From Actinomyces sp. HPA0247 (lineage in GTDB: Bacteria; Actinomycetota; Actinomycetes; Actinomycetales; Actinomycetaceae), in the NCBI GenBank assembly GCA_000411415.1, contig KE150450.1, forward strand, positions 1,190,932-1,254,931: a stretch of DNA of 64,000 nucleotides, read 5' to 3'. The notes beneath the pieces were generated by a model. It made no database searches, had not been told where the DNA came from, and saw nothing but the letters and a program-made list of their open reading frames with translations. Position 1 is the stretch's first letter; every line of letters starts with the position of its first letter. A program made the translations under genes and the position numbers. This document shows positions 17,356 through 44,344 of the stretch, piece by piece.

Positions 17356-18567
17356 CTACTTCCGGTGGTATGCGGGGCTGGTGCCCAGGTGTACCGGTGA
17401 TTTGATGAGGGGGTTTGAGATGGGGCCCTCATCCGTGCCACGGTACGTGTAGGCATCGCCCATGCGGTTGGTGCTGGGGTCGACGAGGCCGTCGCCGTAC
17501 TGTTGTACTTCCTCAACGGTGGGTGAGGACCCTCCCTGCTTTTGTGCGATGGGGTTCTCGTTGGGGTACTGCGAGGGATCGGTGTTCATCAGATCGCCGA
17601 GGCTGATCGCCCCGTAACCGGTCTTATCGTTCCACTGCTTATCGGGGTTCAGAGCCGTCTTGACCATAAGCTGGAGCAGCTGGTTGGCGGTGGCGTCAGG
17701 CCACTTCTGGCGTGCCAATGCCATCAATCCGGATGCGATTGCCGTCGAGACAGAGGTGCCCTTGGTCGTGTCGACCTTGCCGGTGTCAAATGCGCGAACG
17801 TTGACCGGGCCGCCCACTGCTGTGACTGTGACGCCTCGGCCCCACGAGGAGTAGTCGGAGGCGTAGCCGCCTTCGTTGTTTATTGCGGCGACGCCCACGA
17901 CACCCGACCACCAGCTCAGGTGCGAGTCGTTTTCATCTTGCCCCGTGTTGCCAGTGGAGGCCATGATGATGACGCCTTCGCTCATGGCGCGGGCGATCGC
18001 CCACTTCAGTTCGTCGCTGTGGTCATTGGAGCTCTGGGAGATCGAGATGATTTGCGCGCCGTCATCAATGGCCTGGTTAATGAGGATCGCGAAAGAATCC
18101 TGAATTTTACCGCCATCAGCGCATGTGCCCAGGTCGTCATCGTTGGAGGACGTCTGGTAGGTGTACAAGGTGGCGTCCGGAGCGACTCCATACTTTTGCG
18201 AGACGATGAGGGCAGCCATGTGGTTCGCATGGTACTTGCCTGCCTCGGACGACTTGATTGTGCAGCGGCTCTTGTCGGTGATGTTGGCGCCAGCCAGTTC
18301 AGGGTCGCTGAGCTCGACGGGGCCATCAATGAGGGCGATGGTCACGCCCTTACCCGTGTAGCCTTTCGTGTGCGCGGAGTCAAGATAGTAGTAGGAGACG
18401 TATTCCTGCGAGGTGATCTCGTCGGCATGCGCGGGGGTTGGCGCGAGGGCAAGGGCGCCGACGGCCAGGGCGAGGGCGCTAGCGGCTGTGGTCAGGGCGC
18501 GCGCGGCGCGCCCCGCTCTCCCCACGCAAGCGAGAGGAGAACGGGGTGCGGCTGGCGTGCGTGTCAT
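17356..18567 (-). CDS. Secreted S8 subtilisin-like protease, mini-mycosin 2 (cassette B, third)
   Basis: A 403-residue protein with a long twin-basic signal peptide ending near AHA (residue 48). Triad residues are D81 (IALIDGPVE), H113 and S272 (GTSVSTA). The His motif is unusual: the family HGT is HAN here (KYHANHMAAL), which could alter activity. Two cysteines in the mature domain (SRCTI and GTCADG) probably form a disulfide, as in its paralogues. It ends LGTSPAYHRK. It is the last gene of cassette B, four bases after the preceding protease gene. No C-terminal membrane helix. Confidence 0.86.
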   Translation of the reverse strand: MTRTPAAPRSPLACVGRAGRAARALTTAASALALAVGALALAPTPAHADEITSQEYVSYYYLDSAHTKGYTGKGVTIALIDGPVELSDPELAGANITDKSRCTIKSSEAGKYHANHMAALIVSQKYGVAPDATLYTYQTSSNDDDLGTCADGGKIQDSFAILINQAIDDGAQIISISQSSNDHSDELKWAIARAMSEGVIIMASTGNTGQDENDSHLSWWSGVVGVAAINNEGGYASDYSSWGRGVTVTAVGGPVNVRAFDTGKVDTTKGTSVSTAIASGLMALARQKWPDATANQLLQLMVKTALNPDKQWNDKTGYGAISLGDLMNTDPSQYPNENPIAQKQGGSSPTVEEVQQYGDGLVDPSTNRMGDAYTYRGTDEGPISNPLIKSPVHLGTSPAYHRK

Positions 18568-18571
18568 GGGG

Positions 18572-19804
18572 TTACTTTCGGTGGTATGCGGGGCTTGTGC
18601 CCAGGTGCGGTGTCTGGGTCAGGAATTCCGCGTGGATGTAGATGTCGTCCGTTCCTCGGTACACGTATGTATCGTCAAACGTGCCCAGCGGAGCGTCAGC
18701 ACGCCCGTCCCCGTAGTCGCGGATCATCTCAGCGGTGGGGTATGCGTCGTCGAGCTTTTGGCTCACGGGATTCTCATCAGGATACTGAGAGGGATCCGTA
18801 TTGATGAGCGCACCGGGGTTGACGGCTCCATAGCACGTGCGGTTGTTCCACGCATGCTGGGAGTTTGAACCGGTGTGTATAAGCAGCTGCAGGAGCTGAT
18901 TCGATGTTGCGTCAGGCCACTTTTGACGTGCCAACGCAAGAGATGCTGCGACGATGGGAGTTGCAATAGAGGTGCCGCTTGCATCGCTGATCTGTCCCTT
19001 ATCATAGTCACGGACTTTGATAGGACCTCCGAATGCAGCAGCGGTGACGCTGTCGCCGTAGGAGGAATAGTCTGATGCGAATGACCCATCCAGATTAATG
19101 GCGGAGACACCCACCGTACCGTTGCGGCTGGCATAGCTCCCGCCATCGTTATCAGTCGACGTATTGCCCATGCCGGTCACAACGATAATGCCTTGGTTGA
19201 TGGCACGGCTTAATGCGGCGTTCAGAGGAGCTTCGAACTGAGCATCGATCTGTCCCGCTGCGATGGAGATCGTGATGATCTGTGCTCCGTCGTTGATCGC
19301 AAAGTTGATCAGCGCCCCCAACTCATCAAGTGCAGTGCCAGTCTCAGGGTTGCAGTCCGCAGAGGGCTCCTGATCTCTGAAACTGGTTTGGTAGGAGTAC
19401 AACGTCGCGTCGGGCAGGAACCCATAATTCTTGGAAACCAGCAGGGAGGCGATTGCTGTCCCGTGTGTCTTCGATTCATTGTCGCTATTCACCGTGCAGC
19501 GGCTCTTGTCGGTGATGTTGGCACCAGCCAGTTCGGGTGCACTGGTGTCTACTGGCCCATCGATCATCGCGATGGTCACACCCTTACCCGTATAGCCCTT
19601 GGCACGCGCCTGATCAAGCTTGTAATACGAGAAATAATCCTGCGTCGTAATTGTGTCATCGGCATGTGCGGGGGCCGGTGCCACCACCAGTGCACCCACG
19701 CATAGTGCGAGGGCGCTTGCGGCTGTGGTGAGGGCGCGCGCGGCGCGCCCCGCCACGCCCGCAAACATGCGGGGGTGGCGGGGCGTGGCTGGCGTGCGTG
19801 TCAT
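18572..19804 (-). CDS. Secreted S8 subtilisin-like protease, mini-mycosin 3 (cassette B, second)
   Basis: The start was set at the ATG of MTRTPATPRHPR, as in its paralogues, giving 410 residues and rejecting an upstream extension to 20014. The signal peptide ends near AHA. The triad is D82 (IAMIDGPVD), H114 (KTHGTAIAS) and S279 (GTSIATP), with N214 in GMGN as the oxyanion residue. Of the array members this has the most canonical Ser motif. The C-terminus is LGTSPAYHRK. Junctions to both neighbouring protease genes are four bases, implying coupled translation. Confidence 0.88.
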   Translation of the reverse strand: MTRTPATPRHPRMFAGVAGRAARALTTAASALALCVGALVVAPAPAHADDTITTQDYFSYYKLDQARAKGYTGKGVTIAMIDGPVDTSAPELAGANITDKSRCTVNSDNESKTHGTAIASLLVSKNYGFLPDATLYSYQTSFRDQEPSADCNPETGTALDELGALINFAINDGAQIITISIAAGQIDAQFEAPLNAALSRAINQGIIVVTGMGNTSTDNDGGSYASRNGTVGVSAINLDGSFASDYSSYGDSVTAAAFGGPIKVRDYDKGQISDASGTSIATPIVAASLALARQKWPDATSNQLLQLLIHTGSNSQHAWNNRTCYGAVNPGALINTDPSQYPDENPVSQKLDDAYPTAEMIRDYGDGRADAPLGTFDDTYVYRGTDDIYIHAEFLTQTPHLGTSPAYHRK

Positions 19805-19808
19805 GGGG

Positions 19809-20987
19809 TCACTTCTGGTGGTAACGGGGGCTGGTCCCGATGTGCGGTACGTTGGATAGAACGGAGGAATATGCGATTGACTCGTCGAAGCCCCGGTAGA
19901 CGTACGAATCAGCCATGTTGACACCGAGAGGGCTGATAACTTCGTTTGCAAGGTCCAATCGCTCCTCGGGTGTGGGATGACTGTCTGTACCTTTGTCGGC
20001 CAGTGGATTCTCATCGGGATACTGTGAGGGATCTGTTCTCATCAAGGAAGCACCATCAATTGCCCCGTACCCGGTGTACTGATTCCAGTCGTGGTTGGGG
20101 TTGAGACTGTTCTTCACGAGAAGCTGGAGCAGCTGGTTGGCGCTCGCACTGGGCCATTTCTGCCGCGCCATAGCCATGAATCCAGCAGCGATTGCGGTAG
20201 CGTTGGACGTTCCCTGCGTGGTGGTGATGGCGCCGGTATCCACGTTACGTACGTTAATGGGGCCTCCGAAAGCCGCGGTCGTCACACCGGGGCCGTAGGA
20301 GGAGTAGGAAGCGAAGGACCGATCTGCATTAACTGCGGACACTCCCACGACGCCTGACCAGCGGCCCAAGCTCTCGGTGTCCTCTGCTCCGCTGTTTCCC
20401 GCGCCTGCGAGGATGATGACACCTTCATTCATGGCGCGGGCGACTGCCCACATGAGGCTTGGTGAACGATCTTCGCTGGTTGCGGAGATTGAAATGATTT
20501 GTGCGCCATCATCAATGGCTTGGTTGATGAGGATATCGAGGTTTGCTCGATAGCCTGTAGCTGTTTCGCAACCGGACGTATCGTCTGGACGCTGGCCAGC
20601 CTGATAAGTGTAGAGCGTTGCGTCAGGTGCGACACCGTATTTCTGGGAGACCAGAAGGGCAGCCATTTGATTGCCATGGTCCTTCTTGTCGCCCTTGGCG
20701 ATGATCGTGCAGCGGCTCTTGTCGGTGATGTTGGCACCAGCCAGTTCAGGGTCGCTGAGGTTAACGGGTTCATCGATGAGGGCAACGGTGACGCCTTTTC
20801 CGGTGTGCCCCTTCGCGCGCGCTTGATCAAGGTGGTAGTAGGAGACGTACTCCTGCGAGGTGATCTCGTCGGCGTGTGCGGGGGCCGGTGCCAGGGCAAG
20901 CGCACCCGCGCTCAACGCAAGAGCACAGGCAGCGGTGGTCAGGACTCGCGCAGGCTTGTGAGTGGTTACCACTGGCGTAGGTCCCAT
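19809..20987 (-). CDS. Secreted S8 subtilisin-like protease, mini-mycosin 4 (cassette B, first)
   Basis: A 392-residue product if the ATG inside the upstream gene is used; a GTG five codons later (20972) is an alternative. The first codons overlap the last 22 bases of the glycine-rich gene, so the N-terminus differs from the paralogues (MGPTPVVTTHKP). Triad: D72 (VALIDEPVN), H104 (KDHGNQMAA, HGN in place of HGT) and S261 (GTSNATA). A signal peptide and C-terminal GTSPRYHQK are present. It is the first protease after the glycine-rich substrate-like protein of cassette B. Confidence 0.85.
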   Translation of the reverse strand: MGPTPVVTTHKPARVLTTAACALALSAGALALAPAPAHADEITSQEYVSYYHLDQARAKGHTGKGVTVALIDEPVNLSDPELAGANITDKSRCTIIAKGDKKDHGNQMAALLVSQKYGVAPDATLYTYQAGQRPDDTSGCETATGYRANLDILINQAIDDGAQIISISATSEDRSPSLMWAVARAMNEGVIILAGAGNSGAEDTESLGRWSGVVGVSAVNADRSFASYSSYGPGVTTAAFGGPINVRNVDTGAITTTQGTSNATAIAAGFMAMARQKWPSASANQLLQLLVKNSLNPNHDWNQYTGYGAIDGASLMRTDPSQYPDENPLADKGTDSHPTPEERLDLANEVISPLGVNMADSYVYRGFDESIAYSSVLSNVPHIGTSPRYHQK

Positions 20988-22597
20988 CCGTCGTCTTCCC
21001 GCTTGACGGGAGCAATCGTGCGGTCCGTCCCATAGGTCTGAGACAAGGGATTGACATAACCGGCGGGCAGATCATCCTCATCATCGTCCACCGTGAAAGC
21101 CACATACTTACGCTTGCGGCCCTTCTTATCATCCTTGCCCATGCCAGCACCCGCGCCAGCGCCGCCCATGAAGCCGCCACCAGCACCAGCTCCACCACGA
21201 CCGGCAGCACCAGCCGCGCCAGCCGCGCCACTACCGCCTGCGCCGGTCGTGCCGGTCACGCCAGAGGCGCCCGCACCGGCCGCACCATTAGCGCCCGCCA
21301 TGGAGGCGGGGGGAGTGTAGGAACCAAAACCCGAACCCGAGTAGGACCCCACGCGCAGGTTCGAGGCTCCCATGGCGCCCGCAGAGCCCGTCGTGCCGGT
21401 AATACCACGCAGACCGGCCGCACCCAGGCCACCAGCAGAACCAGACGCTCCGCCAAAGCCCGAACCCATGCGAGCCGCACCGCCCAGGCCGCCAAAGCCC
21501 GAGCCCATGCGAGCCGCGCCGCGCATACCCAGCGCGCCCGCGCCCAACACGCCAGCCCCACCCAGACGACCAGCAGCCGCCGCTTCAGAGGCTGCGCCGC
21601 CGTTGAGGCGCCACAGCGGATGCTGCGCGTCCGCCGGAGGTGCAGGGGTATGTCCGCCTACGACGCCGTTGCGATACGTTGTACCGTTAACCCGCGTGTG
21701 CAGCAGGTCGGTGTCCATGAGGTCCTGCGGATCCGTGATCGGGTTCGTGCGCGATCCCAACTCACCGTAGGGCAACTCCTGCCGGGGGACGGCACCCGAG
21801 GCGATCACGCGGTTACGAGCCGCAGCCGCGTCGGCCTCGCTCCACCACGGCTTATCAAAGCCACCCGGATAACCCTCACCATTACGACCACCCTGACGGC
21901 CAAAACCGTTCTCCGGCGAATAACCCCCACCGCCACCATAGCCGTGGCCGCCACCACCCCCGGTATTACCGGTGCTGCCGCCGCCATGATTGCCTTGATC
22001 GGGATCCGCTGTTACTGTGGCGATGTCGACGTGCTTCCCCTTGCGTACGTCTGACATAGCGCCCGATAAGTCAGTGGTCCGATTGTTAATCGTGTCGAGG
22101 ATTCGTCGGCAGGAATCTTCACGCTGGGCATTCGCCTGAGCTTCGACACCCGCTACGTATGCTTCTCCTGTCGTAATACGCAAGGGGCCGAGTGCAACAC
22201 CCCCACCGGGCTTGGAGGATGGAACGAAGACATACTTGTCGTTGCGCATTGCTGCGGTCTCAGCGTCAAGAAGGCTATCGCTTATGCTTTGACCTTCTGA
22301 ATAGGCGTTGGCCATTGCATCGCGAGCTGCCGTGTACACGGTATGGCCGGATTCGTATTGCTGACGGTAGCTGTTGATTCGATCGATCGATGTGTCGACC
22401 CACTTGTCCATCGCTTCCGCAGCTTTACCCGTAAAGCCGTGGCTCTTCCGATACTCTTGAAGTCGCTTAACGGCGTCGTCAAAACCCTGGATAGTATTTT
22501 GATGCTCAGTCTCCCAGCGCTCGAGGTCACCGTTTGCCTTTGCGTGGTACAAAAAGGTCTTGAGCTTGTGATAGTACGGCGAAGACACCATGATCAA
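20966..22597 (-). CDS. WXG/PPE-like glycine-rich putative T7SS substrate (cassette B)
   Basis: A 543-residue protein without signal peptide. The first ~190 residues are helical and resemble a WXG/PPE-type four-helix domain, with GFTGKAAEAM at the WXG position. A His/Gly-rich linker, a middle region (PWWSEADAAAARNRV) and a long Gly/Ala/Ser-rich stretch follow. The tail is charged (KKGRKRKYVAFTVDDDEDD) and reminiscent of the RKYV tails of streptomycete PPE-like proteins (from memory). From the His/Gly linker on it is nearly identical to the cassette A copy, while the N-terminal helices differ. Export by the ESX machine is inferred from fold and context. Confidence 0.7.
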   Translation of the reverse strand: MIMVSSPYYHKLKTFLYHAKANGDLERWETEHQNTIQGFDDAVKRLQEYRKSHGFTGKAAEAMDKWVDTSIDRINSYRQQYESGHTVYTAARDAMANAYSEGQSISDSLLDAETAAMRNDKYVFVPSSKPGGGVALGPLRITTGEAYVAGVEAQANAQREDSCRRILDTINNRTTDLSGAMSDVRKGKHVDIATVTADPDQGNHGGGSTGNTGGGGGHGYGGGGGYSPENGFGRQGGRNGEGYPGGFDKPWWSEADAAAARNRVIASGAVPRQELPYGELGSRTNPITDPQDLMDTDLLHTRVNGTTYRNGVVGGHTPAPPADAQHPLWRLNGGAASEAAAAGRLGGAGVLGAGALGMRGAARMGSGFGGLGGAARMGSGFGGASGSAGGLGAAGLRGITGTTGSAGAMGASNLRVGSYSGSGFGSYTPPASMAGANGAAGAGASGVTGTTGAGGSGAAGAAGAAGRGGAGAGGGFMGGAGAGAGMGKDDKKGRKRKYVAFTVDDDEDDLPAGYVNPLSQTYGTDRTIAPVKREDDGWDLRQW

Positions 22598-22611
22598 AGC
22601 CTCTTTTTCTC

Positions 22612-23100
22612 TTAGTCGTCGTATTCAGTCGCAGCGCCGGTGTCGGAAGGAGCACCTGTAGCTCCCTGAGTAGCGGTCGAATTGGAAGCTGGTTTCACGT
22701 CTTTCTCAGTGACAGCATAGCCGCCGTCTTCGAGTGCCTTCTTGAGATTGTGGGAAGCTTCCGAGTCGGAGACCGTGTGAAGGGCATGCTTGACCTGACG
22801 GAATGAGTATTCTGCATCCCACTCGGCATCCTTGACTGCTTCCATCACTTGTTTGGTTTCCGTGATGAAAGTTGAGATGAGAGCGTTTTCTTCCTTGAGA
22901 ATCTTTGAGATATCGCTGAATAGGCCAGCTGTAGTCTGACGCATCGCTGCGGGACCCCGTTCACTTCCCCACGCGGTGAAGTCCTGAGCGGCGCTGAGCT
23001 TGTCCGCGTTTTCAGAAGAAGTCTTGACGGCGGCTTGTCCGTCCTCCGCATGCGGTATTGCCTCTTCCTGGGCCTTTTGGTGATATGCCAAATCTGCCAC
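22612..23100 (-). CDS. Small helical protein, likely partner of the glycine-rich protein (cassette B)
   Basis: A 162-residue, mostly alpha-helical acidic protein with no signal peptide or membrane segment. It includes FTAWGSERGPAAM (a WG turn between helices) and a low-complexity Thr/Ala/Gly tail ending in acidic residues. The gene lies 14 bp upstream of the glycine-rich substrate gene. Its cassette A counterpart occupies the same slot and keeps a similar (S/D)FWG/AWG...GP(A/V)AMR signature but is otherwise diverged. A co-secreted partner or chaperone is the simplest reading. No known family recognised. Confidence 0.6.
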   Translation of the reverse strand: MADLAYHQKAQEEAIPHAEDGQAAVKTSSENADKLSAAQDFTAWGSERGPAAMRQTTAGLFSDISKILKEENALISTFITETKQVMEAVKDAEWDAEYSFRQVKHALHTVSDSEASHNLKKALEDGGYAVTEKDVKPASNSTATQGATGAPSDTGAATEYDD

Positions 23101-23154
23101 GGTGTTCTCCTTGCGTTGATGGGTTGTTGCGAGGCGCTGGCTTGCGCCGGTTGC

Positions 23155-23700
23155 TTACTTGCCGACCTTGAAGCGGCGGACTAGAGGCTGGTCGGGTTGG
23201 TCGGGACCGTCGATCTTCATGGTCCATACGTAGACGAGGTCGGAGCCGCTGCCTTCAACGTCGATGGTCCACGAGGAGTAGTACTGGCAGTCCTGCTCGA
23301 CACACAGGTCGTAGGTATCTTGGCCGAGACGCCAGTAGTCCGTTGCAGACATGAGTCTGTAGACGGTGGAGTTCTTATCAACCGAAATGGTGCCGTTTTC
23401 GTCCAGTTTGAACTTCTGCTCGAAGATCCCATCGCTCTCGCCGATCAGCTGCGTGCCGACCACGTTGTTCAGGGCGGTGGCCTTCTCGAGGATTTCCTTC
23501 TTTTCGGAGCCGGAGGCGGAGTTGAGCTGGCTGATGAGGTCCTGCTTGATGCCTTCGGGGATGTTCTTCATCTTGCTGATGTCCGAGGAACTGGATCCTC
23601 CACCCCCGCCGGGCAGGCTGATACAGCCGGTCAGGCCGATGGCTGCCAGCACCAGGGACGAGGCCGCCGCGAGGGTGCGACGAGACGCGAGAGGGGACAT
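23155..23700 (-). CDS. Lipoprotein heading cassette B
   Basis: A 181-residue predicted lipoprotein: a type II signal peptide with lipobox LTGC (Cys at residue 26), then a Gly/Ser spacer. The mature part starts with a helical region (residues 40-85) followed by a beta-rich domain with two cysteines (LCVEQDCQYY) and ends RRFKVGK. The first ~86 residues are identical to the cassette A paralogue, while the C-terminal half is diverged. No family recognised. It is the first gene after the cassette promoter and is anchored on the outer face of the membrane. Confidence 0.75.
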   Translation of the reverse strand: MSPLASRRTLAAASSLVLAAIGLTGCISLPGGGGGSSSSDISKMKNIPEGIKQDLISQLNSASGSEKKEILEKATALNNVVGTQLIGESDGIFEQKFKLDENGTISVDKNSTVYRLMSATDYWRLGQDTYDLCVEQDCQYYSSWTIDVEGSGSDLVYVWTMKIDGPDQPDQPLVRRFKVGK

Positions 23701-23727
23701 ATTTTTCTCCTACTGTCAGACCGTCCC

Positions 23728-23758
23728 ATCATATGCGTTTCGCAGACCTCCGTGTCAA
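23728..23758 (-). promoter_or_regulatory. Promoter of cassette B
   Basis: Read on the minus strand: TTGACA (23753-23758), a 19-bp spacer, then TATGAT (23728-23733), 28 bp before the lipoprotein ATG. A conserved leader CTGACAGTAGGAGAAAAAT carries the AGGAG ribosome-binding site. The same hexamers, spacing and leader occur upstream of cassette A although the spacer sequence is different, which supports a real promoter. Confidence 0.7.
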
Positions 23759-23915
23759 CAAATGATCAGGTTAGTAGGGGCGTCTGCTTTGCCTTCCGTT
23801 GGAGTCGTACCGTTGACGCGCATGGACAGCGTTTGAGCTGTGATAGTGGAATTGCCTGTGCCTTGTGTGATGGGTTTTTGCCGGAGGGTCGGTTCTACTT
23901 CGCGGGGAGGCGAAA
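23759..23915. other. Intergenic DNA between cassette B promoter and the mini-mycosin remnant
   Basis: Within the 336-bp gap between the two cassettes, this stretch has no gene and lower GC than its surroundings. It shows no clear terminator hairpin. It may be the junction where the two cassette copies were joined. Confidence 0.4.
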
Positions 23916-24032
23916 TTACTGCATGGAGTTAAAAGTGAAGGGGTATGTCGCGTCCATGCTTCCACATGCGGCGCGCCCCGTTCTCCCCGCGAAAGCGAGA
24001 GGAGAACGGGGCGTGGCTGGCGTGTGTGTCAT
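23916..24032 (-). pseudogene. Truncated remnant of a seventh array mini-mycosin gene
   Basis: An ATG at 24032 lies four bases after the stop of the preceding protease gene, the same junction used throughout the array. It starts MTHTPATPRSPLAFAGR, clearly the signal-peptide start of a paralogue and closest to the gene at 17356-18567. Homology ends after GRAA (about 22 codons) and the frame closes at codon 39. The rest of the gene is missing, so a deletion or recombination event removed it. Confidence 0.8.
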
Positions 24033-24036
24033 GGGG

Positions 24037-25257
24037 TTACTTTCGGTGGTATGCGGGGCTGGTTCCGAGGTGGATGGTTAGTCCTTCGGTGGGGACGATG
24101 GCGATTTCGTCGTTGGTGCCCCGGTATACGTAGGAGGTGGGGAGGACATTCCTGGCGAGGTTGGGCGTGATAGTCCCATCTGTGAAGTCCTGGATTTCTT
24201 TGGCCGTGGGGGAGGAGCCACCCGGCTTGTCGATGATGGGGTTCTCGTCGGGGTATTGCGAGGGGTCCGTGTTGACCAGTGCGCCACCATCGATGGGACC
24301 ATAGCCTGTTTGTTGGTTCCAGTCGTGGTTTGGGTTCAGACCCGTGTGGACCAGGAGTTGGAGGATCTGGTTGGGGGTGGCGTCGGGCCACTTCTGGCGA
24401 GCGAGCGCCAGCATGCCGGCAACGAGAGCGGTGGAGTTTGAGGTGCCATCAGATTCTGCGGGGGCACCAGTATCCGCGTCTACGGTTCTGAAAGGTCCTC
24501 CGATGGCGGCAGTCACCACGCCATTACCCCATGATGAATAGGGTGCGAATGTGCCATCAGAGGTGATAGCGGAGACGCCCACGACTCCAGACCAGCGACT
24601 CAAGTGGGTGCTATTGTCGTCGCTGCTATTGTTGCCAGCGGAAGCAACGATGATGACTCCGCGTGAGACGGCATTGGCAATGGCCCACTTTACTTCGTCA
24701 GACTGATCCGACGCCCCCTGGGAAACGGAGATGATCTGGGCGCCATCCTCGATAGCCTGGTTGATGAGTTTACCGAACGTGTCTTGCTTCTCACCGCCGA
24801 GGGCACAGCTGCCCGCTGAGCGCGAGCTTGCGTTGGATAGCTGATAGGTGAGTAGCGTCGCGTCGGGGGCAACACCGGTGTAGGGAGACACGAGGATTGT
24901 TGCCATGTCGGTGCCGTGTCGTACTCCCGCTGGCGACGCCTCGATAGTGCAGCGGCTCTTGTCGGTGATGTTGGCGCCCGTGAGCTCGGCAACGTTGGTG
25001 TCGACGGGGCCATCAATCAGTGCGATGGTCACGCCCTTGCCCGTGTATCCCTTTTGGCGTGCAGCGTCAAGGTGATAGTAGGAGAAGTATCCCTGGGTAG
25101 TAATCGGGTCAGCTGCGTGCGCTGGGGCCGGTGCCAGGGCAAGCGCGCCGACGGCCAGGGCGAGGGCGCTTGCGGCTGTGGTCAGGGCGCGCGCGGCGCG
25201 CCCCGCCACGCCCGCGAACATGCGGGGGTGGCGGGGCGTGGCTGGCGTGCGTGTCAT
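24037..25257 (-). CDS. Secreted S8 subtilisin-like protease, mini-mycosin 5 (cassette A, third)
   Basis: A 406-residue secreted protease with signal peptide ending near AHA and triad D82 (IALIDGPVD), H114 (VRHGTDMAT) and S273 (GTSNSTA); N209 lies in SAGNN. Two mature-domain cysteines (SRCTI, GSCALGG) are kept. It ends LGTSPAYHRK. The protein is identical to the upstream neighbour at 25262-26482. Gene junctions are the array-type TAA-CCCC-ATG, with GAAAG from the preceding gene's last codons probably acting as ribosome-binding site. Confidence 0.88.
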   Translation of the reverse strand: MTRTPATPRHPRMFAGVAGRAARALTTAASALALAVGALALAPAPAHAADPITTQGYFSYYHLDAARQKGYTGKGVTIALIDGPVDTNVAELTGANITDKSRCTIEASPAGVRHGTDMATILVSPYTGVAPDATLLTYQLSNASSRSAGSCALGGEKQDTFGKLINQAIEDGAQIISVSQGASDQSDEVKWAIANAVSRGVIIVASAGNNSSDDNSTHLSRWSGVVGVSAITSDGTFAPYSSWGNGVVTAAIGGPFRTVDADTGAPAESDGTSNSTALVAGMLALARQKWPDATPNQILQLLVHTGLNPNHDWNQQTGYGPIDGGALVNTDPSQYPDENPIIDKPGGSSPTAKEIQDFTDGTITPNLARNVLPTSYVYRGTNDEIAIVPTEGLTIHLGTSPAYHRK

Positions 25258-25261
25258 GGGG

Positions 25262-26482
25262 TTACTTTCGGTGGTATGCGGGGCTGGTTCCGAGGTGGAT
25301 GGTTAGTCCTTCGGTGGGGACGATGGCGATTTCGTCGTTGGTGCCCCGGTATACGTAGGAGGTGGGGAGGACATTCCTGGCGAGGTTGGGCGTGATAGTC
25401 CCATCTGTGAAGTCCTGGATTTCTTTGGCCGTGGGGGAGGAGCCACCCGGCTTGTCGATGATGGGGTTCTCGTCGGGGTATTGCGAGGGGTCCGTGTTGA
25501 CCAGTGCGCCACCATCGATGGGACCATAGCCTGTTTGTTGGTTCCAGTCGTGGTTTGGGTTCAGACCCGTGTGGACCAGGAGTTGGAGGATCTGGTTGGG
25601 GGTGGCGTCGGGCCACTTCTGGCGAGCGAGCGCCAGCATGCCGGCAACGAGAGCGGTGGAGTTTGAGGTGCCATCAGATTCTGCGGGGGCACCAGTATCC
25701 GCGTCTACGGTTCTGAAAGGTCCTCCGATGGCGGCAGTCACCACGCCATTACCCCATGATGAATAGGGTGCGAATGTGCCATCAGAGGTGATAGCGGAGA
25801 CGCCCACGACTCCAGACCAGCGACTCAAGTGGGTGCTATTGTCGTCGCTGCTATTGTTGCCAGCGGAAGCAACGATGATGACTCCGCGTGAGACGGCATT
25901 GGCAATGGCCCACTTTACTTCGTCAGACTGATCCGACGCCCCCTGGGAAACGGAGATGATCTGGGCGCCATCCTCGATAGCCTGGTTGATGAGTTTACCG
26001 AACGTGTCTTGCTTCTCACCGCCGAGGGCACAGCTGCCCGCTGAGCGCGAGCTTGCGTTGGATAGCTGATAGGTGAGTAGCGTCGCGTCGGGGGCAACAC
26101 CGGTGTAGGGAGACACGAGGATTGTTGCCATGTCGGTGCCGTGTCGTACTCCCGCTGGCGACGCCTCGATAGTGCAGCGGCTCTTGTCGGTGATGTTGGC
26201 GCCCGTGAGCTCGGCAACGTTGGTGTCGACGGGGCCATCAATCAGTGCGATGGTCACGCCCTTGCCCGTGTATCCCTTTTGGCGTGCAGCGTCAAGGTGA
26301 TAGTAGGAGAAGTATCCCTGGGTAGTAATCGGGTCAGCTGCGTGCGCTGGGGCCGGTGCCAGGGCAAGCGCGCCGACGGCCAGGGCGAGGGCGCTTGCGG
26401 CTGTGGTCAGGGCGCGCGCGGCGCGCCCCGCCACGCCCGCGAACATGCGGGGGTGGCGGGGCGTGGCTGGCGTGCGTGTCAT
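25262..26482 (-). CDS. Secreted S8 subtilisin-like protease, mini-mycosin 6 (cassette A, second)
   Basis: Its product is residue-for-residue the same as that of the gene at 24037-25257 (406 residues; D82, H114, S273; signal peptide; GTSPAYHRK tail). It is the upstream copy of the 1225-bp tandem duplication. Having two identical genes in one transcript suggests either a dosage effect or an ongoing cycle of duplication and divergence. Confidence 0.88.
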   Translation of the reverse strand: MTRTPATPRHPRMFAGVAGRAARALTTAASALALAVGALALAPAPAHAADPITTQGYFSYYHLDAARQKGYTGKGVTIALIDGPVDTNVAELTGANITDKSRCTIEASPAGVRHGTDMATILVSPYTGVAPDATLLTYQLSNASSRSAGSCALGGEKQDTFGKLINQAIEDGAQIISVSQGASDQSDEVKWAIANAVSRGVIIVASAGNNSSDDNSTHLSRWSGVVGVSAITSDGTFAPYSSWGNGVVTAAIGGPFRTVDADTGAPAESDGTSNSTALVAGMLALARQKWPDATPNQILQLLVHTGLNPNHDWNQQTGYGPIDGGALVNTDPSQYPDENPIIDKPGGSSPTAKEIQDFTDGTITPNLARNVLPTSYVYRGTNDEIAIVPTEGLTIHLGTSPAYHRK

Positions 26483-26486
26483 GGGG

Positions 26487-27725
26487 TTACTTTCGGTGGT
26501 ATGCGGGGCTGGTTCCGAGGTGGATGGTTAGTCCTTCGGTGGGGACGATGGCGATTTCGTCGTTGGTGCCCCGGTACACGTAGGAGCTGGGGAGGACATT
26601 CATGGCGAGGTTGGGCTTGATGGTCCCGTCCGTGAAGTCCTGGATTTCTTTGGCCGTGGGGGAGGAGCCGCCCGGCTTGTCGATGATGGGATTCTCATCC
26701 GGGTATTGCGAGGGATCCTCATTTACGAGAGATCCTAGGGCGGCCGCGCCATATCCTGTTTGTTGGTTCCAGTCATGGTTCGGGTTCAGACCCGTGTGGA
26801 CCAGGAGTTGGAGGATCTGGTTGGGGGTGGCGTCGGGCCACTTCTGGCGAGCGAGCGCCAGCATACCGGCAACGAGCGGTGCAGAAATGGACGTGCCATG
26901 GGCTGTAGCCGAAGCTCCCGTGTCGGGATTAATTGTATTGAAGGGGCCGCCGAAAGCCGCGGTGACGACGCCATTTCCCCAGGATGAGTAGGACGCGAAG
27001 GTGCCATCGCTGTTGATAGCGGAGACACCGATGACACCGGACCAGCGGGCGAGCTGGGTGCTGTTTTCGTCGCGCGCGCTGTTACCAGCGGAGTTGATGA
27101 TGATAACCCCGTGTGAAATGGCATTGGCGACGGCCCACTTGAGCTCATCAGATGTGTCTGGAACGGCCATTGACACGGTGATGATCTGGGCCCCGTCCTC
27201 GACGGCCTGATTGATGAGTTTCCCCATTGAATCCAGAGCCTCGCCGCCGGTGTCGCATGTACCGGTCGACTGGGTGTCGCTACTTCTTGTTTGGTAACTG
27301 TACAGGGTCGCGTCGGGTGCAACGCCCGTGTAGGGAGAGACCAAGATGATCGCCATGTCCGTACCATGACGTAAAGCCTTTGGTCCGTCTTCGATAGTGC
27401 AGCGGCTCTTGTCGGTAATTTTCGCTCCGCTGAGGGCGGGGTCGCTAGTGTTAACGGTGCCGTCAATGAGCGCAATCGTGACGCCTTTTCCTGTGTAACC
27501 CTTTTGGCGTGCTGCGTCGAGGTGGTAGTAGGAGAAGTATTCCTGTGAAGGCACGGCGTCATCCGCGTGAGCTGACGCCGGTGCCAGGGCAAGCGCGCCG
27601 ACGGCCAGGGCGAGGGCGCTTGTGGCGGTGGTGAGGGCGCGCGCGGCGCGCCCCGCCATGCCCGCGAACATGCGGGGGTGGCGGGGCGCAGGCTTGTGAG
27701 TGGTTACCACTGGCGTAGGTCCCAT
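26487..27725 (-). CDS. Secreted S8 subtilisin-like protease, mini-mycosin 7 (cassette A, first)
   Basis: A 412-residue product. As in cassette B, the first codons (MGPTPVVTTHKP) overlap the end of the upstream glycine-rich gene by 22 bases. They are followed by the normal paralogue start APRHPRMFAGMAGRAARA. Triad: D88 (IALIDGTVN), H120 (LRHGTDMAI) and S279 (GTSISAP). Two mature cysteines and the LGTSPAYHRK tail are present. Its last ~30 residues are nearly those of the duplicated neighbours, a sign of gene conversion. Confidence 0.87.
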   Translation of the reverse strand: MGPTPVVTTHKPAPRHPRMFAGMAGRAARALTTATSALALAVGALALAPASAHADDAVPSQEYFSYYHLDAARQKGYTGKGVTIALIDGTVNTSDPALSGAKITDKSRCTIEDGPKALRHGTDMAIILVSPYTGVAPDATLYSYQTRSSDTQSTGTCDTGGEALDSMGKLINQAVEDGAQIITVSMAVPDTSDELKWAVANAISHGVIIINSAGNSARDENSTQLARWSGVIGVSAINSDGTFASYSSWGNGVVTAAFGGPFNTINPDTGASATAHGTSISAPLVAGMLALARQKWPDATPNQILQLLVHTGLNPNHDWNQQTGYGAAALGSLVNEDPSQYPDENPIIDKPGGSSPTAKEIQDFTDGTIKPNLAMNVLPSSYVYRGTNDEIAIVPTEGLTIHLGTSPAYHRK

Positions 27726-29368
27726 CCGTCGTCCTCGCGCTTGACGGGAGTGATCGTGCGGTCCGTCCCGTAGGTTTGCGACATGGGGTTGACGTAACCG
27801 GCGGGCAGATCATCCTCATCATCATCCACCGTGAAAGCCACATACTTACGCTTGCGGCCCTTCTTATCATCCTTGCCCATACCAGCGCCCGCGCCAGCGC
27901 CGCCCATGAAGCCGCCACCAGCACCAGCACCGCCACGACCGGCAGCACCCGCAGCGCCAGCCGCGCCACTACCGCCTGCACCGGTCGTGCCGGTTACGCC
28001 AGAGGTGCCCGCGCCGGCCGCACCATTAGCGCCCGCCATGGAGGCGGGGGGAGTGTAGGAACCAAAACCCGAACCCGAGTAGGACCCCACGCGCAGGTTC
28101 GAGGCTCCCATGGCGCCCGCAGAGCCCGTCGTGCCGGTAATACCACGCAGACCGGCCGCACCCAGGCCACCAGCAGAACCAGACGCGCCGCCAAAGCCCG
28201 AACCCATGCGAGCCGCACCGCCCAGGCCGCCAAAGCCCGAGCCCATGCGAGCCGCGCCGCGCATACCCAGCGCGCCAGCGCCCAGCACACCAGCCCCACC
28301 CAGGCGACCGGCGGTTGTTGCGTCGGCGGAGGCTGCGCCGCCGTTGAGGCGCCACAGCGGGTGACCGGAGTCCGCAGCGGGTGCGGGGGTGTGTCCACCT
28401 ACGACGCCGTTGCGATACGTCGTACCGTTGACGCGCGTGTGCAGCAGGTCGGTGTCCATGAGGTCCTGCGGATCCGTGATCGGGTTCGTGCGCGAACCCA
28501 GCTCGCCGTACGGGAGCTCCTTGGTGGGGACGGCGCCCGAGGCGATCACGCGGTTACGAGCCGCAGCCGCGTCAGCCTCGCTCCACCACGGCTGATCAAA
28601 GCCACCCGGATAACCCTCACCATTACGACCACCCTCGCGACCAAAACCATTCTCCGGCGAATAACCACCGCCACCATAGCCATGGCCACCACCACCGGTA
28701 TTACCCGTGCCGCCGCCGTTGGAACCTCCGTTGTTATCTTGGTCGTACACGAACTGCAAGTTAGGGGGTGTTATCTGAGACGGGAGGTTGGCCCCGATGT
28801 GCATTCCCATACTCATTACGGCAGTTCCTACATTCATCTCGGCCAGGATGCGTGCGGCAGAAGCTTCACGCTGAGCGTTGTTCTCCGCCTCAACTGCCTC
28901 GACGTAGGCGGCTCCGGTCGTGTACTTCTTATTGATGATGGGCACTTTGAGGCCGGAGACGGAGGAATTTTCCGGAATCTCGACGACCCAATCGTCACGC
29001 ATCGCAGCGGTCTTCGCATCCAACAGGTCCGGAGAGACAGTTTCGGCTTCGGCGAGGGCTTGGGCCATAACCTCACGGCCGGCCGTGTAACTCTCGTAGC
29101 CGCGCCTATAGTTGTCGCGGTACCACTCAATACGCTTAATCGACGCGTCCACCCAATTGTTCATCGCGTCGCCCGTTGCACCCGTGAAGCCATGGTTCTC
29201 ACGGTAGGCGGTCAGCTGTTCAATGGACTTATCGAAGCCCTTGAGCACCTTGCTGTGGTCCGTGTCCCACGCGTCCAGATTCTGGTTGGCGCGAGCAGCC
29301 GTCATGAATGCCTTCAGGCGCTCGTACATCGGAGATGAAACCATGATAAATATCCTTTCAAATCCCAA
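27704..29368 (-). CDS. WXG/PPE-like glycine-rich putative T7SS substrate (cassette A)
   Basis: A 554-residue paralogue of the protein at 20966-22597. The helical N-terminal ~200 residues (with GFTGATGDAMNNW at the WXG position) are well diverged. The part from the His/Gly linker through the Gly/Ala-rich region and charged tail is almost the same. No signal peptide. The upstream codons MGFERIF may be extra; MVSSPMYERL, matching the paralogue, is the likelier start about seven codons in. It is probably exported by the adjacent ESX system together with the small protein encoded just upstream (inference). Confidence 0.7.
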   Translation of the reverse strand: MGFERIFIMVSSPMYERLKAFMTAARANQNLDAWDTDHSKVLKGFDKSIEQLTAYRENHGFTGATGDAMNNWVDASIKRIEWYRDNYRRGYESYTAGREVMAQALAEAETVSPDLLDAKTAAMRDDWVVEIPENSSVSGLKVPIINKKYTTGAAYVEAVEAENNAQREASAARILAEMNVGTAVMSMGMHIGANLPSQITPPNLQFVYDQDNNGGSNGGGTGNTGGGGHGYGGGGYSPENGFGREGGRNGEGYPGGFDQPWWSEADAAAARNRVIASGAVPTKELPYGELGSRTNPITDPQDLMDTDLLHTRVNGTTYRNGVVGGHTPAPAADSGHPLWRLNGGAASADATTAGRLGGAGVLGAGALGMRGAARMGSGFGGLGGAARMGSGFGGASGSAGGLGAAGLRGITGTTGSAGAMGASNLRVGSYSGSGFGSYTPPASMAGANGAAGAGTSGVTGTTGAGGSGAAGAAGAAGRGGAGAGGGFMGGAGAGAGMGKDDKKGRKRKYVAFTVDDDEDDLPAGYVNPMSQTYGTDRTITPVKREDDGWDLRQW

Positions 29369-29376
29369 AAGTTAAT

Positions 29377-29928
29377 TTAAACGTCAGGCTGATCATTCTG
29401 AACCGGTGCCGACGTAGTCTGCTGCGGCGTCGCCTGCGTTGCTGTAGCACCTGCAGCTACAGCGGTACCCGCGCCTGCGGCAGCGCTCTTACCGATGAGG
29501 CCAGAGGCAAGATCCGCCGCCGTCATGTTCACGCCGAGACGGGCGAACATGGTCGTCATGACTCCCACCGTGTGGTTATTCTTCAGGAACTCGTTTACTT
29601 TGTCCGCCGCCAGCTGCTTGAACTGGGTCTCGTTGGTGTATTCCGTGCCCGTGAATTCCTTCATGGCCTGGTGCATGTAGGCCTCGAATTCCTGGAGGAG
29701 CCTCGTCTCTGCGGCGAGGAGTTCCGAGATCGTGTTGAACATGTCGGTCGCTCGGGTGCGCATAGCGACGGGACCGGTCTCCTGTCCCCAGAAGGAAGAC
29801 TCCTGGGCGCTGCCCAGTGAGGTCGCGCCGTTACGGGACTCAGTGACGGCATCCCAGGTTTCATTAACCTTCGGGGCAGCTGCTTGCTGCTGGTCGTCAT
29901 CGTATTGAACTCCGGAGTATCCGGACAT
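29377..29928 (-). CDS. Small helical protein, likely partner of the glycine-rich protein (cassette A)
   Basis: A 183-residue helical protein occupying the same slot as 22612-23100. It shares the SSFWGQETGPVAMR-type turn but little else. The C-terminal third is Ala/Thr/Gln-rich low complexity. It has no signal peptide. It ends 8 bp before the glycine-rich gene, so coexpression is certain in practice. Divergence from its cassette B counterpart parallels that of the partner's N-terminal domain. Family not recognised. Confidence 0.6.
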   Translation of the reverse strand: MSGYSGVQYDDDQQQAAAPKVNETWDAVTESRNGATSLGSAQESSFWGQETGPVAMRTRATDMFNTISELLAAETRLLQEFEAYMHQAMKEFTGTEYTNETQFKQLAADKVNEFLKNNHTVGVMTTMFARLGVNMTAADLASGLIGKSAAAGAGTAVAAGATATQATPQQTTSAPVQNDQPDV

Positions 29929-29984
29929 TGTTAGCTCCTAATGGGTCGATGCGGAATGGGAGTGTGCGGCGATGCGCCGGTTGC

Positions 29985-30533
29985 TTACTTGCCGACTCTG
30001 AAGCGGCGGACGAGGGGTTGGTCGGTGACTTCGGGGTTGTCGATCTTGAGGGTCCACACGTAGACGAGGTTTGAGCCGTTGCCTTCGGTGTCGATGGTCC
30101 ACGAGGAGTAGTACTGGCAGTCCTGGTCGACGCACAGGTCGTAGCTGTCCTGACCGAGACGCCAGTAGTCAGCACCGGACATCACGAGGTACACGTCCTC
30201 GTTCTTGTCGACGGTGACCATGCCCTTGGGATCCAGCTTGTATTTTTGACCGCTCGCGATGCTCGGATCGACTGCGATCAGCTGCGTGCCGACCACGTTG
30301 TTCAGGGCGGTGGCCTTCTCGAGGATTTCCTTCTTTTCGGAGCCGGAGGCGGAGTTGAGCTGGCTGATGAGGTCCTGCTTGATGCCTTCGGGGATGTTCT
30401 TCATCTTGCTGATGTCCGAGGAACTGGATCCTCCACCTCCGCCAGGCAGGCTGATACAGCCGGTCAGGCCGATGGCTGCCAGCACCAGGGACGAGGCCGC
30501 CGCGAGGGTGCGACGAGACGCGAGAGGGGACAT
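29985..30533 (-). CDS. Lipoprotein heading cassette A
   Basis: A 182-residue predicted lipoprotein, lipobox LTGC at residues 23-26. Residues 1-86 are identical to the cassette B lipoprotein; the C-terminal domain differs moderately but keeps SGADYWRLGQD, the cysteine pair (LCVDQDCQYY) and RRFRVGK. It begins 66 bp after eccC and has its own promoter, so it need not depend on eccC transcription. Function unknown; it would sit on the outer face of the membrane next to the secretion machine. Confidence 0.75.
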   Translation of the reverse strand: MSPLASRRTLAAASSLVLAAIGLTGCISLPGGGGGSSSSDISKMKNIPEGIKQDLISQLNSASGSEKKEILEKATALNNVVGTQLIAVDPSIASGQKYKLDPKGMVTVDKNEDVYLVMSGADYWRLGQDSYDLCVDQDCQYYSSWTIDTEGNGSNLVYVWTLKIDNPEVTDQPLVRRFRVGK

Positions 30534-43151: not shown

Positions 43152-44344
43152 TGACTCGGGTTGTGCGCCGCTGGCGGCGTGCGAGTGCGCTGGGTGTGGG
43201 CATCTTCGCCCTCACCGTCGGTGCCGCAGTTGTGCCAGCCGCTCCGGCGAGCGCTGCCGACCGCGAGGTGACGGGCGCCGACGAGGAGTATTACTCCTAC
43301 TACAAGCTGGCCTCCCTGCATAGCCAGGGCTACACCGGCGAAGGCGCGATCATCGCCATGATCGACGGGCACGTCAACCCGAACATTCCCGAGCTGGCCG
43401 GTGCCACGATCGAAAACAAGAGCCCGTGCACGGTCAATTCCCTGCCCGATAACGCGGACCACGGCACGGCCGTCGCCCAGATCCTCGTGGCGCCCAAGTT
43501 CGGTGTCGCCCCCGGCGCGACCCTGTACACCTACGACCTGGGGTACAGCCAGGAGGAAGTGGGTTCGGACTGCGCGACCGCCGGTGTGTACGCGCAGGGT
43601 GAGGCTGACACGTCGCTGCTCATTGAGCAGGCAATCAACGATGGTGCTCACATTATTTCGATCTCGAGCAACTATCCGCACTATTCCGAGGACCTTCGGT
43701 GGGCGATGGCGCGCGCCATTTCGGAGGGCGTCATTGTCGTCGCCGCGATGGGTAACGAATCCACCGAAGATCCCGACGACACGCTGCCCATGTGGTCCGG
43801 GATCTGCGGTGTGGGCGCCATCGAGTCGAACGGTTCGCTGACCGACTACAGCAACTGGGGCAACGGCGTCGAAACCGTTGCGCTGGGTACCGCGACCGTT
43901 CGCAGCGGTACTCGGGGAGATGTTTTCACGGCGCAGGGAACGTCCTTCGCGACCCCTATCGTCGCGGGATTCCTCGCGATCGCCTGGCAGCGCTTCGACG
44001 AGAGTGTCACCTCGAACCAGCTCCTGCAGGCGATGACCACGACGGGCACGGGAAGCAACGGCGACTGGAACTATTACACGGGTTTTGGGCCCGCCGACCC
44101 GTGGGGGCTGCTCAACGCGAAGGCCTCGACGCTGCCCGACACGAATCCATGCGAATCGAAGGTCTATTCGTCGAACCCGAGTTGGCAGGACGTTGAGGAC
44201 TATATCGACGGCACTGTCAATCCGCTGCTGATGAGGAACGACAATGATTACGTCTACCGCGGCGTGAACGAGGATGCGGCGTTTAGTGCGGACAACGACT
44301 ACCCCATGAACCTGGGGACGAGCCCGCGCTATCACCGGCAGTGA
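43148..44344 (+). CDS. Secreted S8 subtilisin-like protease, mini-mycosin 8
   Basis: A 398-residue short subtilase coupled to mycP by an ATGA overlap. Signal peptide to about residue 36; triad D73 (IAMIDGHVN), H105 (DHGTAVAQ) and S266 (GTSFATP); no membrane anchor. It belongs with the protease at 14563 (both start with basic Arg-rich leaders and share NYP/SYPG and GTSPRYH features) rather than with the cassette copies. It ends LGTSPRYHRQ. Two extra cysteines compared with the array members could add a disulfide. Confidence 0.88.
   Translation: MMTRVVRRWRRASALGVGIFALTVGAAVVPAAPASAADREVTGADEEYYSYYKLASLHSQGYTGEGAIIAMIDGHVNPNIPELAGATIENKSPCTVNSLPDNADHGTAVAQILVAPKFGVAPGATLYTYDLGYSQEEVGSDCATAGVYAQGEADTSLLIEQAINDGAHIISISSNYPHYSEDLRWAMARAISEGVIVVAAMGNESTEDPDDTLPMWSGICGVGAIESNGSLTDYSNWGNGVETVALGTATVRSGTRGDVFTAQGTSFATPIVAGFLAIAWQRFDESVTSNQLLQAMTTTGTGSNGDWNYYTGFGPADPWGLLNAKASTLPDTNPCESKVYSSNPSWQDVEDYIDGTVNPLLMRNDNDYVYRGVNEDAAFSADNDYPMNLGTSPRYHRQ

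What the first reader, a model, noticed from the sequence alone, without database searches (positions are those of the whole stretch)
17356..30533. Two tandem copies of a six-gene T7SS cassette carrying arrays of anchor-less mycosin-like proteases
Directly visible: lipoprotein, small helical protein, WXG/PPE-like glycine-rich protein and three short subtilases repeat in the same order and strand (30533-24037 and 23700-17356). With the genes at 14563 and 43148 this gives eight short secreted mycosin-like proteases beside one true membrane MycP. Known ESX loci usually carry one mycosin per system. A multi-protease module linked to two paralogous putative substrates suggests dedicated extracellular processing or a diversifying antagonism/defence system. 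Its function is unknown to me.
Basis: partly seen in the sequence, partly recalled or inferred. Interest (0 to 1): 0.9.

Follow-up and report, generated by a model that had tools for sequence, protein, structure and literature searches.

The report
T7SS substrate cassettes with own proteases
An oral Actinomyces-type bacterium carries several copies of a gene block that pairs a likely type VII secretion substrate with its own set of secreted mycosin-like proteases and a lipoprotein, instead of the single protease that such secretion systems usually have.

Summary
Two tandem six-gene blocks (lipoprotein, small helical protein, Gly-rich protein, three short S8 proteases) lie at 30533-24037 and 23700-17356. 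With 14563 and 43148 the window has eight short proteases beside one anchored MycP. The genome (Schaalia odontolytica group) has three more blocks and 13 short proteases, all with Asp/His/Asn/Ser.

In a 200-genome family sample the Gly-rich profile matched 31 genomes, all EccB-positive: 25 of 25 EccB-positive and 0 of 10 EccB-negative genomes of the genus. Its gene overlaps the next protease gene by exactly 22 nt in 30 of 43 neighbour pairs.

Best reading: a T7SS substrate pair with dedicated exported proteases that process it outside the cell. Proteases without a membrane helix occur in 20 genomes, and all 20 have the lipoprotein; of four genomes with anchored forms, one has it. I infer that the lipoprotein tethers or partners the anchorless proteases. 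Tandem copies are mosaics, in several arrays most divergent in the predicted substrate cleft; dN/dS stays below 1. Defence is unsupported. Secretion, proteolysis and tethering are untested.

The parts
29985..30533 (-). lipoprotein, block A (lipobox LTGC; weak GA-module-like helical part, then a second domain)
   Evidence: GA module matched in 4 of 12 family members at E up to 1, best 0.0028, below the curated cut-off for member 1
29377..29928 (-). small helical WXG-like protein, block A (W-x-x-E-x-G type motif)
   Evidence: no significant Pfam or NCBIfam match for the window copies
27704..29344 (-). Gly-rich protein, block A: helical N-terminal domain, Gly/Ala-rich middle, conserved C-terminus; putative T7SS substrate
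   Evidence: co-occurrence with EccB
26487..27725 (-). short S8 protease, block A copy 1; first 22 nt overlap the Gly-rich gene
25262..26482 (-). short S8 protease, block A copy 2 (no codon differs from copy 3)
24037..25257 (-). short S8 protease, block A copy 3
23155..23700 (-). lipoprotein, block B (83% identical to block A protein)
22612..23100 (-). small helical WXG-like protein, block B (27% identical to block A protein)
20966..22591 (-). Gly-rich protein, block B (76% identical to block A protein)
19809..20987 (-). short S8 protease, block B copy 1; first 22 nt overlap the Gly-rich gene
18572..19804 (-). short S8 protease, block B copy 2 (start at the internal ATG, read from the ORF by eye)
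17356..18567 (-). short S8 protease, block B copy 3
14563..15768 (+). short S8 protease outside the blocks; groups with L054 3528-4718, beside the block at the matching position of G150
43148..44344 (+). short S8 protease that overlaps the 3' end of the MycP gene by 4 nt
41652..43151 (+). core MycP with C-terminal membrane helix
   Evidence: TIGR03921 227 bits, cut-off 278.75; hydropathy 2.83
40279..41724 (+). EccB
   Evidence: PF05108, E 4.6e-46
38914..40275 (+). EccD with YukD domain
   Evidence: PF19053 and PF08817
30600..34649 (-). EccC-type FtsK/SpoIIIE ATPase, directly upstream of block A on the same strand
   Evidence: PF01580
38413..38823 (-). WXG100 protein of the core locus
   Evidence: PF06013, E 3.4e-15

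Best explanation
Each block is a T7SS substrate cassette with its own proteases. The small WXG-like protein and the helical N-terminus of the Gly-rich protein form a pair that the single ESX system of the genome exports (inferred). The short mycosin-like proteases, made from a gene that overlaps the Gly-rich gene, leave by Sec (signal peptide read by eye) and cleave the co-encoded Gly-rich protein outside the membrane, as MycP1 does with EspB (inferred by analogy). These proteases have lost the C-terminal membrane helix of a mycosin; the lipoprotein found with the anchorless forms holds them at the membrane or otherwise partners them (inferred). Tandem duplication followed by gene conversion of the flanks keeps the copies alike except, in several arrays, around the predicted substrate cleft, so that one cassette offers several specificities (the mosaic is shown, its purpose is inferred).
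For: (1) In the same 200 family genomes EccB is found in 50 and the Gly-rich profile in 31, all 31 EccB-positive; within the genus 25 of 25 against 0 of 10 (Fisher 5.4e-9). (2) Small - Gly-rich - S8 order recurs in divergent genus members; 30 of 43 Gly-rich/S8 neighbours overlap by exactly 22 nt and 8 more by 4, 7, 13 or 79 nt. (3) In 24 cassettes of five genomes the distances of the Gly-rich N-terminus and of its S8 correlate (r 0.569); shuffling S8s within genomes reached at most 0.331 in 5000 tries, so each pair is inherited as a unit. (4) Catalytic Asp, His, Asn, Ser kept in 65 of 71 distinct cassette S8s. (5) Cassette S8s without a C-terminal hydrophobic helix: 20 genus genomes, all 20 with the lipoprotein; with a helix: G002, G157, G175, G190, lipoprotein only in G190. 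Eight of 22 lipoprotein genes lie within 133 nt of an S8 gene with nothing between, three of them overlapping it on the same strand. (6) Over 11 tandem arrays pooled pS is 0.65 at residues 146-170 against 0.28-0.34 at 276-345. (7) MycP1 cleaves EspB (passages of PMC5156307).
Against: No secretion, cleavage or binding was measured. Neither the small nor the Gly-rich protein reaches a known T7SS family: best hints are EspC at E 0.0092 and an LXG structure at E 0.038. YxxxD/E after the first Trp occurs in only 18 of 54 small ORFs, with no chance level computed. The Gly-rich searches scored at most 7 candidates per genome, so absence is capped in 7 of the 10 EccB-negative genus genomes, and profile A5 was built from members found in this same sample. 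The anchor/lipoprotein association rests on few anchored genomes, is not independent of descent (Fitch count 4 changes on a weakly resolved part), and G190 has both helix and lipoprotein. Lipoprotein absence in G002 is capped (34 candidates, 17 scored). In lipoprotein-bearing genomes most single-protease cassettes have no lipoprotein gene of their own. The tail motif before the helix is the same in anchored and anchorless forms, so it is not specific to the lipoprotein. dN/dS gives no positive selection, and the cleft peak is absent in L053 and blurred in window block B, window A, L056 and L064. The proteases of G125 and G146 lack Asp and His by alignment although they sit beside the lipoprotein.
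Confidence: 0.5

Rival explanations
1. Antagonism: the short proteases are secreted toxins against neighbouring cells or host proteins, and the lipoprotein is the membrane-bound immunity protein or inhibitor that spares the producer.
For: Tandem arrays, mosaic divergence around the cleft, lipoprotein present wherever anchorless proteases were read. Lipoprotein immunity to a T7SS toxin is known in Staphylococcus aureus (recalled, not looked up).
Against: One conserved lipoprotein (75-83% identity within the genome) serves three diverged proteases per block, and several cassettes have none of their own. Cassettes sit at conserved chromosomal positions. dN/dS below 1. The protease gene is coupled to the Gly-rich gene, which an independent toxin would not need.
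Confidence: 0.2
2. Ordinary expansion of secreted digestive or housekeeping subtilases that happens to sit beside T7SS genes.
For: The genome also has 12 long subtilases. On an unrooted tree cassette S8s, core MycPs and 8 of those 12 long subtilases are three separate clades, so a sister relation to MycP is not shown.
Against: 22-nt overlap with the Gly-rich gene in 30 of 43 pairs. At E 1e-30 the S8 profile matched 23 of the 25 EccB-positive and 0 of the 10 EccB-negative genus genomes (at most 9 candidates scored per genome). TIGR03921 is matched by 19 of 19 members. Anchored members share the signal peptide - S8 - membrane helix layout of mycosins.
Confidence: 0.15
3. Structural role: as with MycP5, the proteases act without proteolysis, capping or stabilising the ESX complex or a Gly-rich assembly.
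For: MycP is needed for ESX function apart from its protease activity (passages of PMC5156307). G125 and G146 keep a protease-like protein without Asp and His beside the lipoprotein.
Against: Anchorless and multi-copy with variable cleft; 65 of 71 keep the catalytic residues; a core MycP is present in the window and was read in nine further genomes, besides two EccB-MycP fusions.
Confidence: 0.1
4. Anti-phage defence module.
For: The 43148 protease has a partial IetS match, E 4e-7, 26.7 bits; NCBIfam IteS E 3.6e-4, 18.9 bits against a cut-off of 900. Weak matches without expected partners: MAD7 for one Gly-rich protein, E 0.065, and HamA for one small protein, E 0.0043.
Against: Signal peptides and a lipobox put the proteins outside the cell (by eye); the IetS and IteS matches cover about 45-55 residues near the catalytic Ser; no partner genes of a known system among the nine proteins given to PADLOC.
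Confidence: 0.02

Closest known systems
Mycosins (MycP, TIGR03921)
   Same: Signal peptide, S8 domain with Asp-His-Asn-Ser, encoded at or tied to an ESX locus; TIGR03921 matched by 19 of 19 members; some relatives keep the C-terminal membrane helix.
   Different: Window copies lack the helix, score 128-157 bits against 278.75 in the three given, form a clade apart from core MycPs, come in arrays of one to three per block, and share the tail YxYRG...GTSPxY.
EspB with MycP1 (ESX-1)
   Same: A T7SS substrate processed by a mycosin; the cassette would repeat this pair (inferred; EspB cleavage from passages of PMC5156307).
   Different: Here the presumed substrate is co-encoded and translationally linked with its own proteases, in several copies per genome; no significant sequence match to EspB.
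T7SS substrate pairs (WXG100/EsxA-B, PE/PPE, EspC, LXG with small partners)
   Same: Small helical protein beside a larger helical protein, tied to EccB; PMC11217815 (abstract and passages) reports small WXG100-related genes beside candidate substrates.
   Different: No significant family match; conserved C-terminus and no C-terminal toxin domain; protease and lipoprotein added.
Polymorphic toxin loci with a mycosin-like protease nearby (Ntox38, PMC3482391)
   Same: A mycosin-like protease in the neighbourhood of a T7SS WXG protein (passage).
   Different: No toxin domain or variable C-terminus found in the Gly-rich proteins.

Membership tests
T7SS mycosin (TIGR03921) | S8 domain with Asp, His, Asn, Ser | tested here: met
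   Invariant in all 13 short proteases of the genome and MycP; 65 of 71 distinct cassette S8s in the genus sample
T7SS mycosin (TIGR03921) | Score over the curated cut-off 278.75 bits | tested here: not met
   127.8, 157.2 and 129.7 bits for the three window copies given; the core MycP of the window also stays below, 227 bits
T7SS mycosin (TIGR03921) | C-terminal membrane anchor | tested here: not met
   Highest 19-residue hydropathy near the C-terminus -0.09 to 0.74 in the 13 own copies; 2.2-3.5 in G002, G157, G175, G190 and 2.83 in MycP
T7SS mycosin (TIGR03921) | Groups with core MycPs | tested here: inconclusive
   71 cassette S8s and 13 core MycPs are separate, 100/100; with 8 long subtilases added the unrooted tree has three separate groups and cannot tell sisters
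T7SS substrate pair (WXG100, PE/PPE, EspB, LXG) | Match to a substrate family | tested here: not met
   Pfam and NCBIfam, single proteins and members of A5 and A8: nothing over a cut-off was seen; EspC best E 0.0092 in 3 of 15, LXG structure E 0.038
T7SS substrate pair (WXG100, PE/PPE, EspB, LXG) | Found only with T7SS core genes | tested here: met
   31 of 31 Gly-rich-positive genomes have EccB, 0 of 150 EccB-negative genomes matched (at most 7 candidates scored per genome; G075, G083, G179 are weak N-terminal matches)
T7SS substrate pair (WXG100, PE/PPE, EspB, LXG) | YxxxD/E export motif in the small partner | tested here: inconclusive
   18 of 54 small ORFs after the first Trp; no chance level computed
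T7SS substrate pair (WXG100, PE/PPE, EspB, LXG) | Secretion that depends on EccC | not testable with these tools
   needs a deletion strain
Polymorphic toxin / immunity locus | Conserved N-terminus with exchanged C-terminal toxin domains | tested here: not met
   In the five own Gly-rich proteins the N-terminus varies and the C-terminus is conserved; no toxin family over a cut-off among the families listed
Known anti-phage defence system | Members of a known system together | tested here: not met
   PADLOC on nine window proteins: generic subtilase model on four proteases, partial IetS on one, weak HamA on one small protein

The most novel reading that the evidence does not exclude
A T7SS module not found described: private, anchorless mycosins co-encoded with each substrate pair and docked to the membrane by a dedicated lipoprotein that replaced the lost transmembrane helix. 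Tandem copies are kept alike by gene conversion except around the substrate cleft, so each cassette is a small multi-specificity processing unit for secreted T7SS surface proteins.
Probability: 0.3. Interest if true: 0.8.

Novelty: new variant of a known kind. Interest (0 to 1): 0.6.

Why it matters
The five mycobacterial ESX systems carry one mycosin each (PMC5156307, passages), and what mycosin proteolysis is for is unsettled outside EspB. Here the presumed substrate and its proteases are fused into a repeated, translationally coupled unit, and nature supplies anchored and anchorless versions with and without a lipoprotein. That makes two questions directly testable in one genus: which T7SS substrates a mycosin cuts, and whether a mycosin must be anchored in the membrane. 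My full-text searches found no description of it (open-licence PubMed Central only).

Tried and rejected
Defence module: rejected as main reading. Positive selection: NG86 dN/dS on 21 protease pairs gave 0.11-0.61 in 20 and no differences in one; rejected as a simple claim, replaced by mosaic divergence. IS-like mobility of the blocks: of 24 loci compared, 23 fall into nine groups that share flanking ORFs between genomes, one (L058) into none (the ORF counts include spurious antisense frames); blocks look fixed rather than mobile. Derivation from the core MycP gene: not shown, trees unrooted and with long branches. Distribution beyond the family: the Gly-rich profile gave 0 of 393 other genomes of the class, but only 3 candidates per genome were scored and only 3 of the 5 own copies came out; the lipoprotein gave 6 weak N-terminal matches in 295 others. 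Solved-structure search for lipoprotein and small protein gave only matches with E above 0.007, chemokines and designed or coiled proteins. A collection scan gave six loci: two titled Schaalia odontolytica, the others titled Sanguibacter keddieii and Xylanimonas cellulosilytica; at least the Sanguibacter contig coincides in coordinates with G066, which the genome tool places in the window's genus, so I take those titles as mislabelled.


Full report
OBSERVATION. The twelve genes of the finding exist as described, and so do the two other short proteases (14563-15768, 43148-44344) and the anchored MycP (41652-43151, hydropathy 2.83 in the last part). Core T7SS genes EccC, EccD, EccB and WXG100 are confirmed by Pfam. 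The genome has 26 PF00082 matches: 13 short proteases, MycP and 12 long subtilases. Three further cassettes lie outside the window: L009 with the full six genes, L010 and L011 with small + Gly-rich + one protease. The Asp, His, Asn and Ser columns are invariant in the 13 short proteases and MycP. Blocks A and B align at 76% (2590 columns) and 86% (601 columns) DNA identity.

FAMILIES. The proteases match PF00082 and, below its cut-off, TIGR03921 mycosin: 127.8, 157.2 and 129.7 bits in three window copies, 227 in MycP, cut-off 278.75. TIGR03921 is matched by 19 of 19 members of a genus-wide alignment. The other three proteins have no match over a Pfam or NCBIfam cut-off in the searches made (the lipoprotein alignment was not run against NCBIfam). 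Hints only: GA module in 4 of 12 lipoproteins (best E 0.0028), EspC in 3 of 15 small proteins (best E 0.0092), an LXG structure for the Gly-rich profile (E 0.038). Signal peptides and the lipobox were read by eye.

DISTRIBUTION. In the same 200 genomes of the family: EccB in 50; Gly-rich profile in 31, all EccB-positive; genus 25 of 25 EccB-positive and 0 of 10 EccB-negative; outside the genus six, three of them weak N-terminal matches (G075, G083, G179). Short S8 at E 1e-30: 25 genomes, namely 23 of the genus, all EccB-positive, plus G002 (EccB-positive) and G151 (EccB-negative, copy with stops in a short contig). Lipoprotein: 21 genus genomes, all S8-positive, and four weak N-terminal matches outside. 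Limits: the searches scored at most 7 (Gly-rich), 9 (S8) or 17 (lipoprotein) candidates per genome. Gly-rich absence is capped in 7 of the 10 EccB-negative genus genomes, S8 absence in G042 (49 candidates, 9 scored); lipoprotein absence in G157 and G175 is not capped. In the class sample the Gly-rich profile gave no other genome of 394, at low sensitivity. The named collection gives Schaalia odontolytica FDAARGOS_732, whose coordinates match G085.

CASSETTE. Order small - Gly-rich - S8 recurs in divergent genus members. Of 43 Gly-rich/S8 neighbour pairs (some loci fetched twice) 30 overlap by exactly 22 nt, 8 more by 4, 7, 13 or 79 nt; two values (484, 550) come from over-long frames, and two pairs have -3 and -22 on the same scale, that is no overlap; that leaves one further pair at 22 by count of the table, and I give only 30. 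The full block with three proteases is also in G150 (L054), G009 (L115), G153 (L117) and G139 (L118, lipoprotein at a contig end). Others have one or two proteases. Of 24 loci from five genomes 23 fall into nine groups that share flanking ORFs, so blocks sit at conserved places. In 24 Gly-rich/S8 pairs from five genomes, distances correlate (r 0.569; within-genome shuffles mean 0.024, highest 0.331, 0 of 5000 as high). This shows joint inheritance, not contact. In G043 and G187, of other genera, Gly-rich and small genes occur without a cassette S8 in the stretch, and the S8 profile found none there at its threshold, so the substrate pair may be older than its protease.

ANCHOR AND LIPOPROTEIN. 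Every cassette S8 read in 20 genus genomes lacks a C-terminal hydrophobic stretch (highest value 1.13); G157, G175, G190 and G002 have one (2.2-3.5) (96 frames read, some fetched twice, some fragments, not every S8 of each genome). The lipoprotein is in all 20 and in one of the four (G190). Fisher p 0.002, but genomes are related; a Fitch count needs 4 changes in a part of the tree that is weakly resolved. Of 22 lipoprotein genes, 9 sit before the small gene, 8 lie within 133 nt of an S8 (5 of them on the same strand), 5 are farther away. In G125, G146 and G194 lipoprotein and S8 form a pair without small or Gly-rich gene in the stretch. The anchored forms of G157, G175 and G190 carry the same tail motif (YxYRG...GTSPR) before their helix; the regular expression matched 71 of 74 cassette S8 frames, and two of the three misses have a near-identical tail. 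Tethering is therefore an inference from co-occurrence.

PROTEASE EVOLUTION. Cassette S8s (71 rows) and core MycPs (13 rows) separate with 100/100 support; with eight of the 12 long subtilases the unrooted tree gives three groups, so descent from MycP is not shown. Catalytic residues: 65 of 71 distinct cassette S8s intact by alignment; exceptions L064 second copy, L069, L070, L089, L090 and a broken L094 fragment. dN/dS was 0.11-0.61 in 20 pairs. Over 11 tandem arrays pooled pN/pS is 0.31/0.65 at residues 146-170 and 0.23/0.60 at 171-195, against 0.05-0.11/0.28-0.34 at 276-345 and 0.06/0.33 at 50-75. It is clearest in L048, L086, L009 and L054; absent in L053; blurred in window block B and, by high pS nearly throughout, in window A, L056 and L064. 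By the alignment to subtilisin Carlsberg/KerA residues 146-220 cover the segment that carries the S1-S4 binding strands and the oxyanion Asn; those pocket assignments are recalled. High pS in the middle with low pS at the flanks points to gene conversion of the flanks.

MECHANISM. Shown: coupling of genes, tie to EccB, intact catalytic residues, anchor loss, lipoprotein association, mosaic copies. Inferred: T7SS export of the small/Gly-rich pair, Sec export of proteases, cleavage of the Gly-rich protein by analogy with MycP1 and EspB (passages of PMC5156307), tethering by the lipoprotein, multi-specificity. Rivals: secreted toxins with lipoprotein immunity; ordinary subtilase expansion; structural role; defence.

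LITERATURE. Passages only of PMC11217815 (plus outline and abstract), PMC3482391, PMC10924467, PMC5156307 and PMC10692110; other papers only as listings. Ntox38 loci with a mycosin-like protease nearby (PMC3482391) are the nearest published neighbourhood seen. Searches for Schaalia odontolytica or Actinomyces odontolyticus with type VII secretion, for Schaalia with subtilase, mycosin-like, multiple mycosins, and mycosin with lipoprotein and anchor found no description of this module, within an open-licence library.

Noticed in passing
L070 14467-17148 (+) and L073 269-2983 (-): One reading frame of 893 and 904 aa joins an EccB-like N-terminal part and a MycP domain with C-terminal helix: an EccB-MycP fusion in two genus genomes, G102 and G198.
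   Followed up: partly
window 15841-17204 (-): Two transposase-like ORFs (167 and 286 aa, IS3-like by eye) between the 14563 protease and block B.
   Followed up: no
window 24037-26482: Two tandem protease genes without any difference over 406 codons: a very recent duplication, gene conversion or an assembly artefact.
   Followed up: partly
L089 6190-7503 and L090 6239-7588: Lipoprotein plus S8 gene pairs in the genomes G125 and G146 whose S8 lacks the Asp and His by alignment: a possible pseudoprotease kept beside the lipoprotein.
   Followed up: partly
window 3190-9234 (+): A 2014-aa protein that looks like repeated Ig/fibronectin-type domains (by eye), near DUF58-, transglutaminase- and kinase-like genes; a large Ig-domain protein is a component of T7SSd/e in PMC11217815 (passages).
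   Followed up: no
L064 7586-10315: The Gly-rich gene of this G085 cassette is split between two reading frames: decay or a sequencing error.
   Followed up: no
L011 10593-12239 and 9994-10596: Downstream of the cassette, a protein with helical N-terminus and hydrolase-like C-terminus beside a lipoprotein with a neighbouring similar copy (by eye): possibly another T7SS substrate and partner.
   Followed up: no
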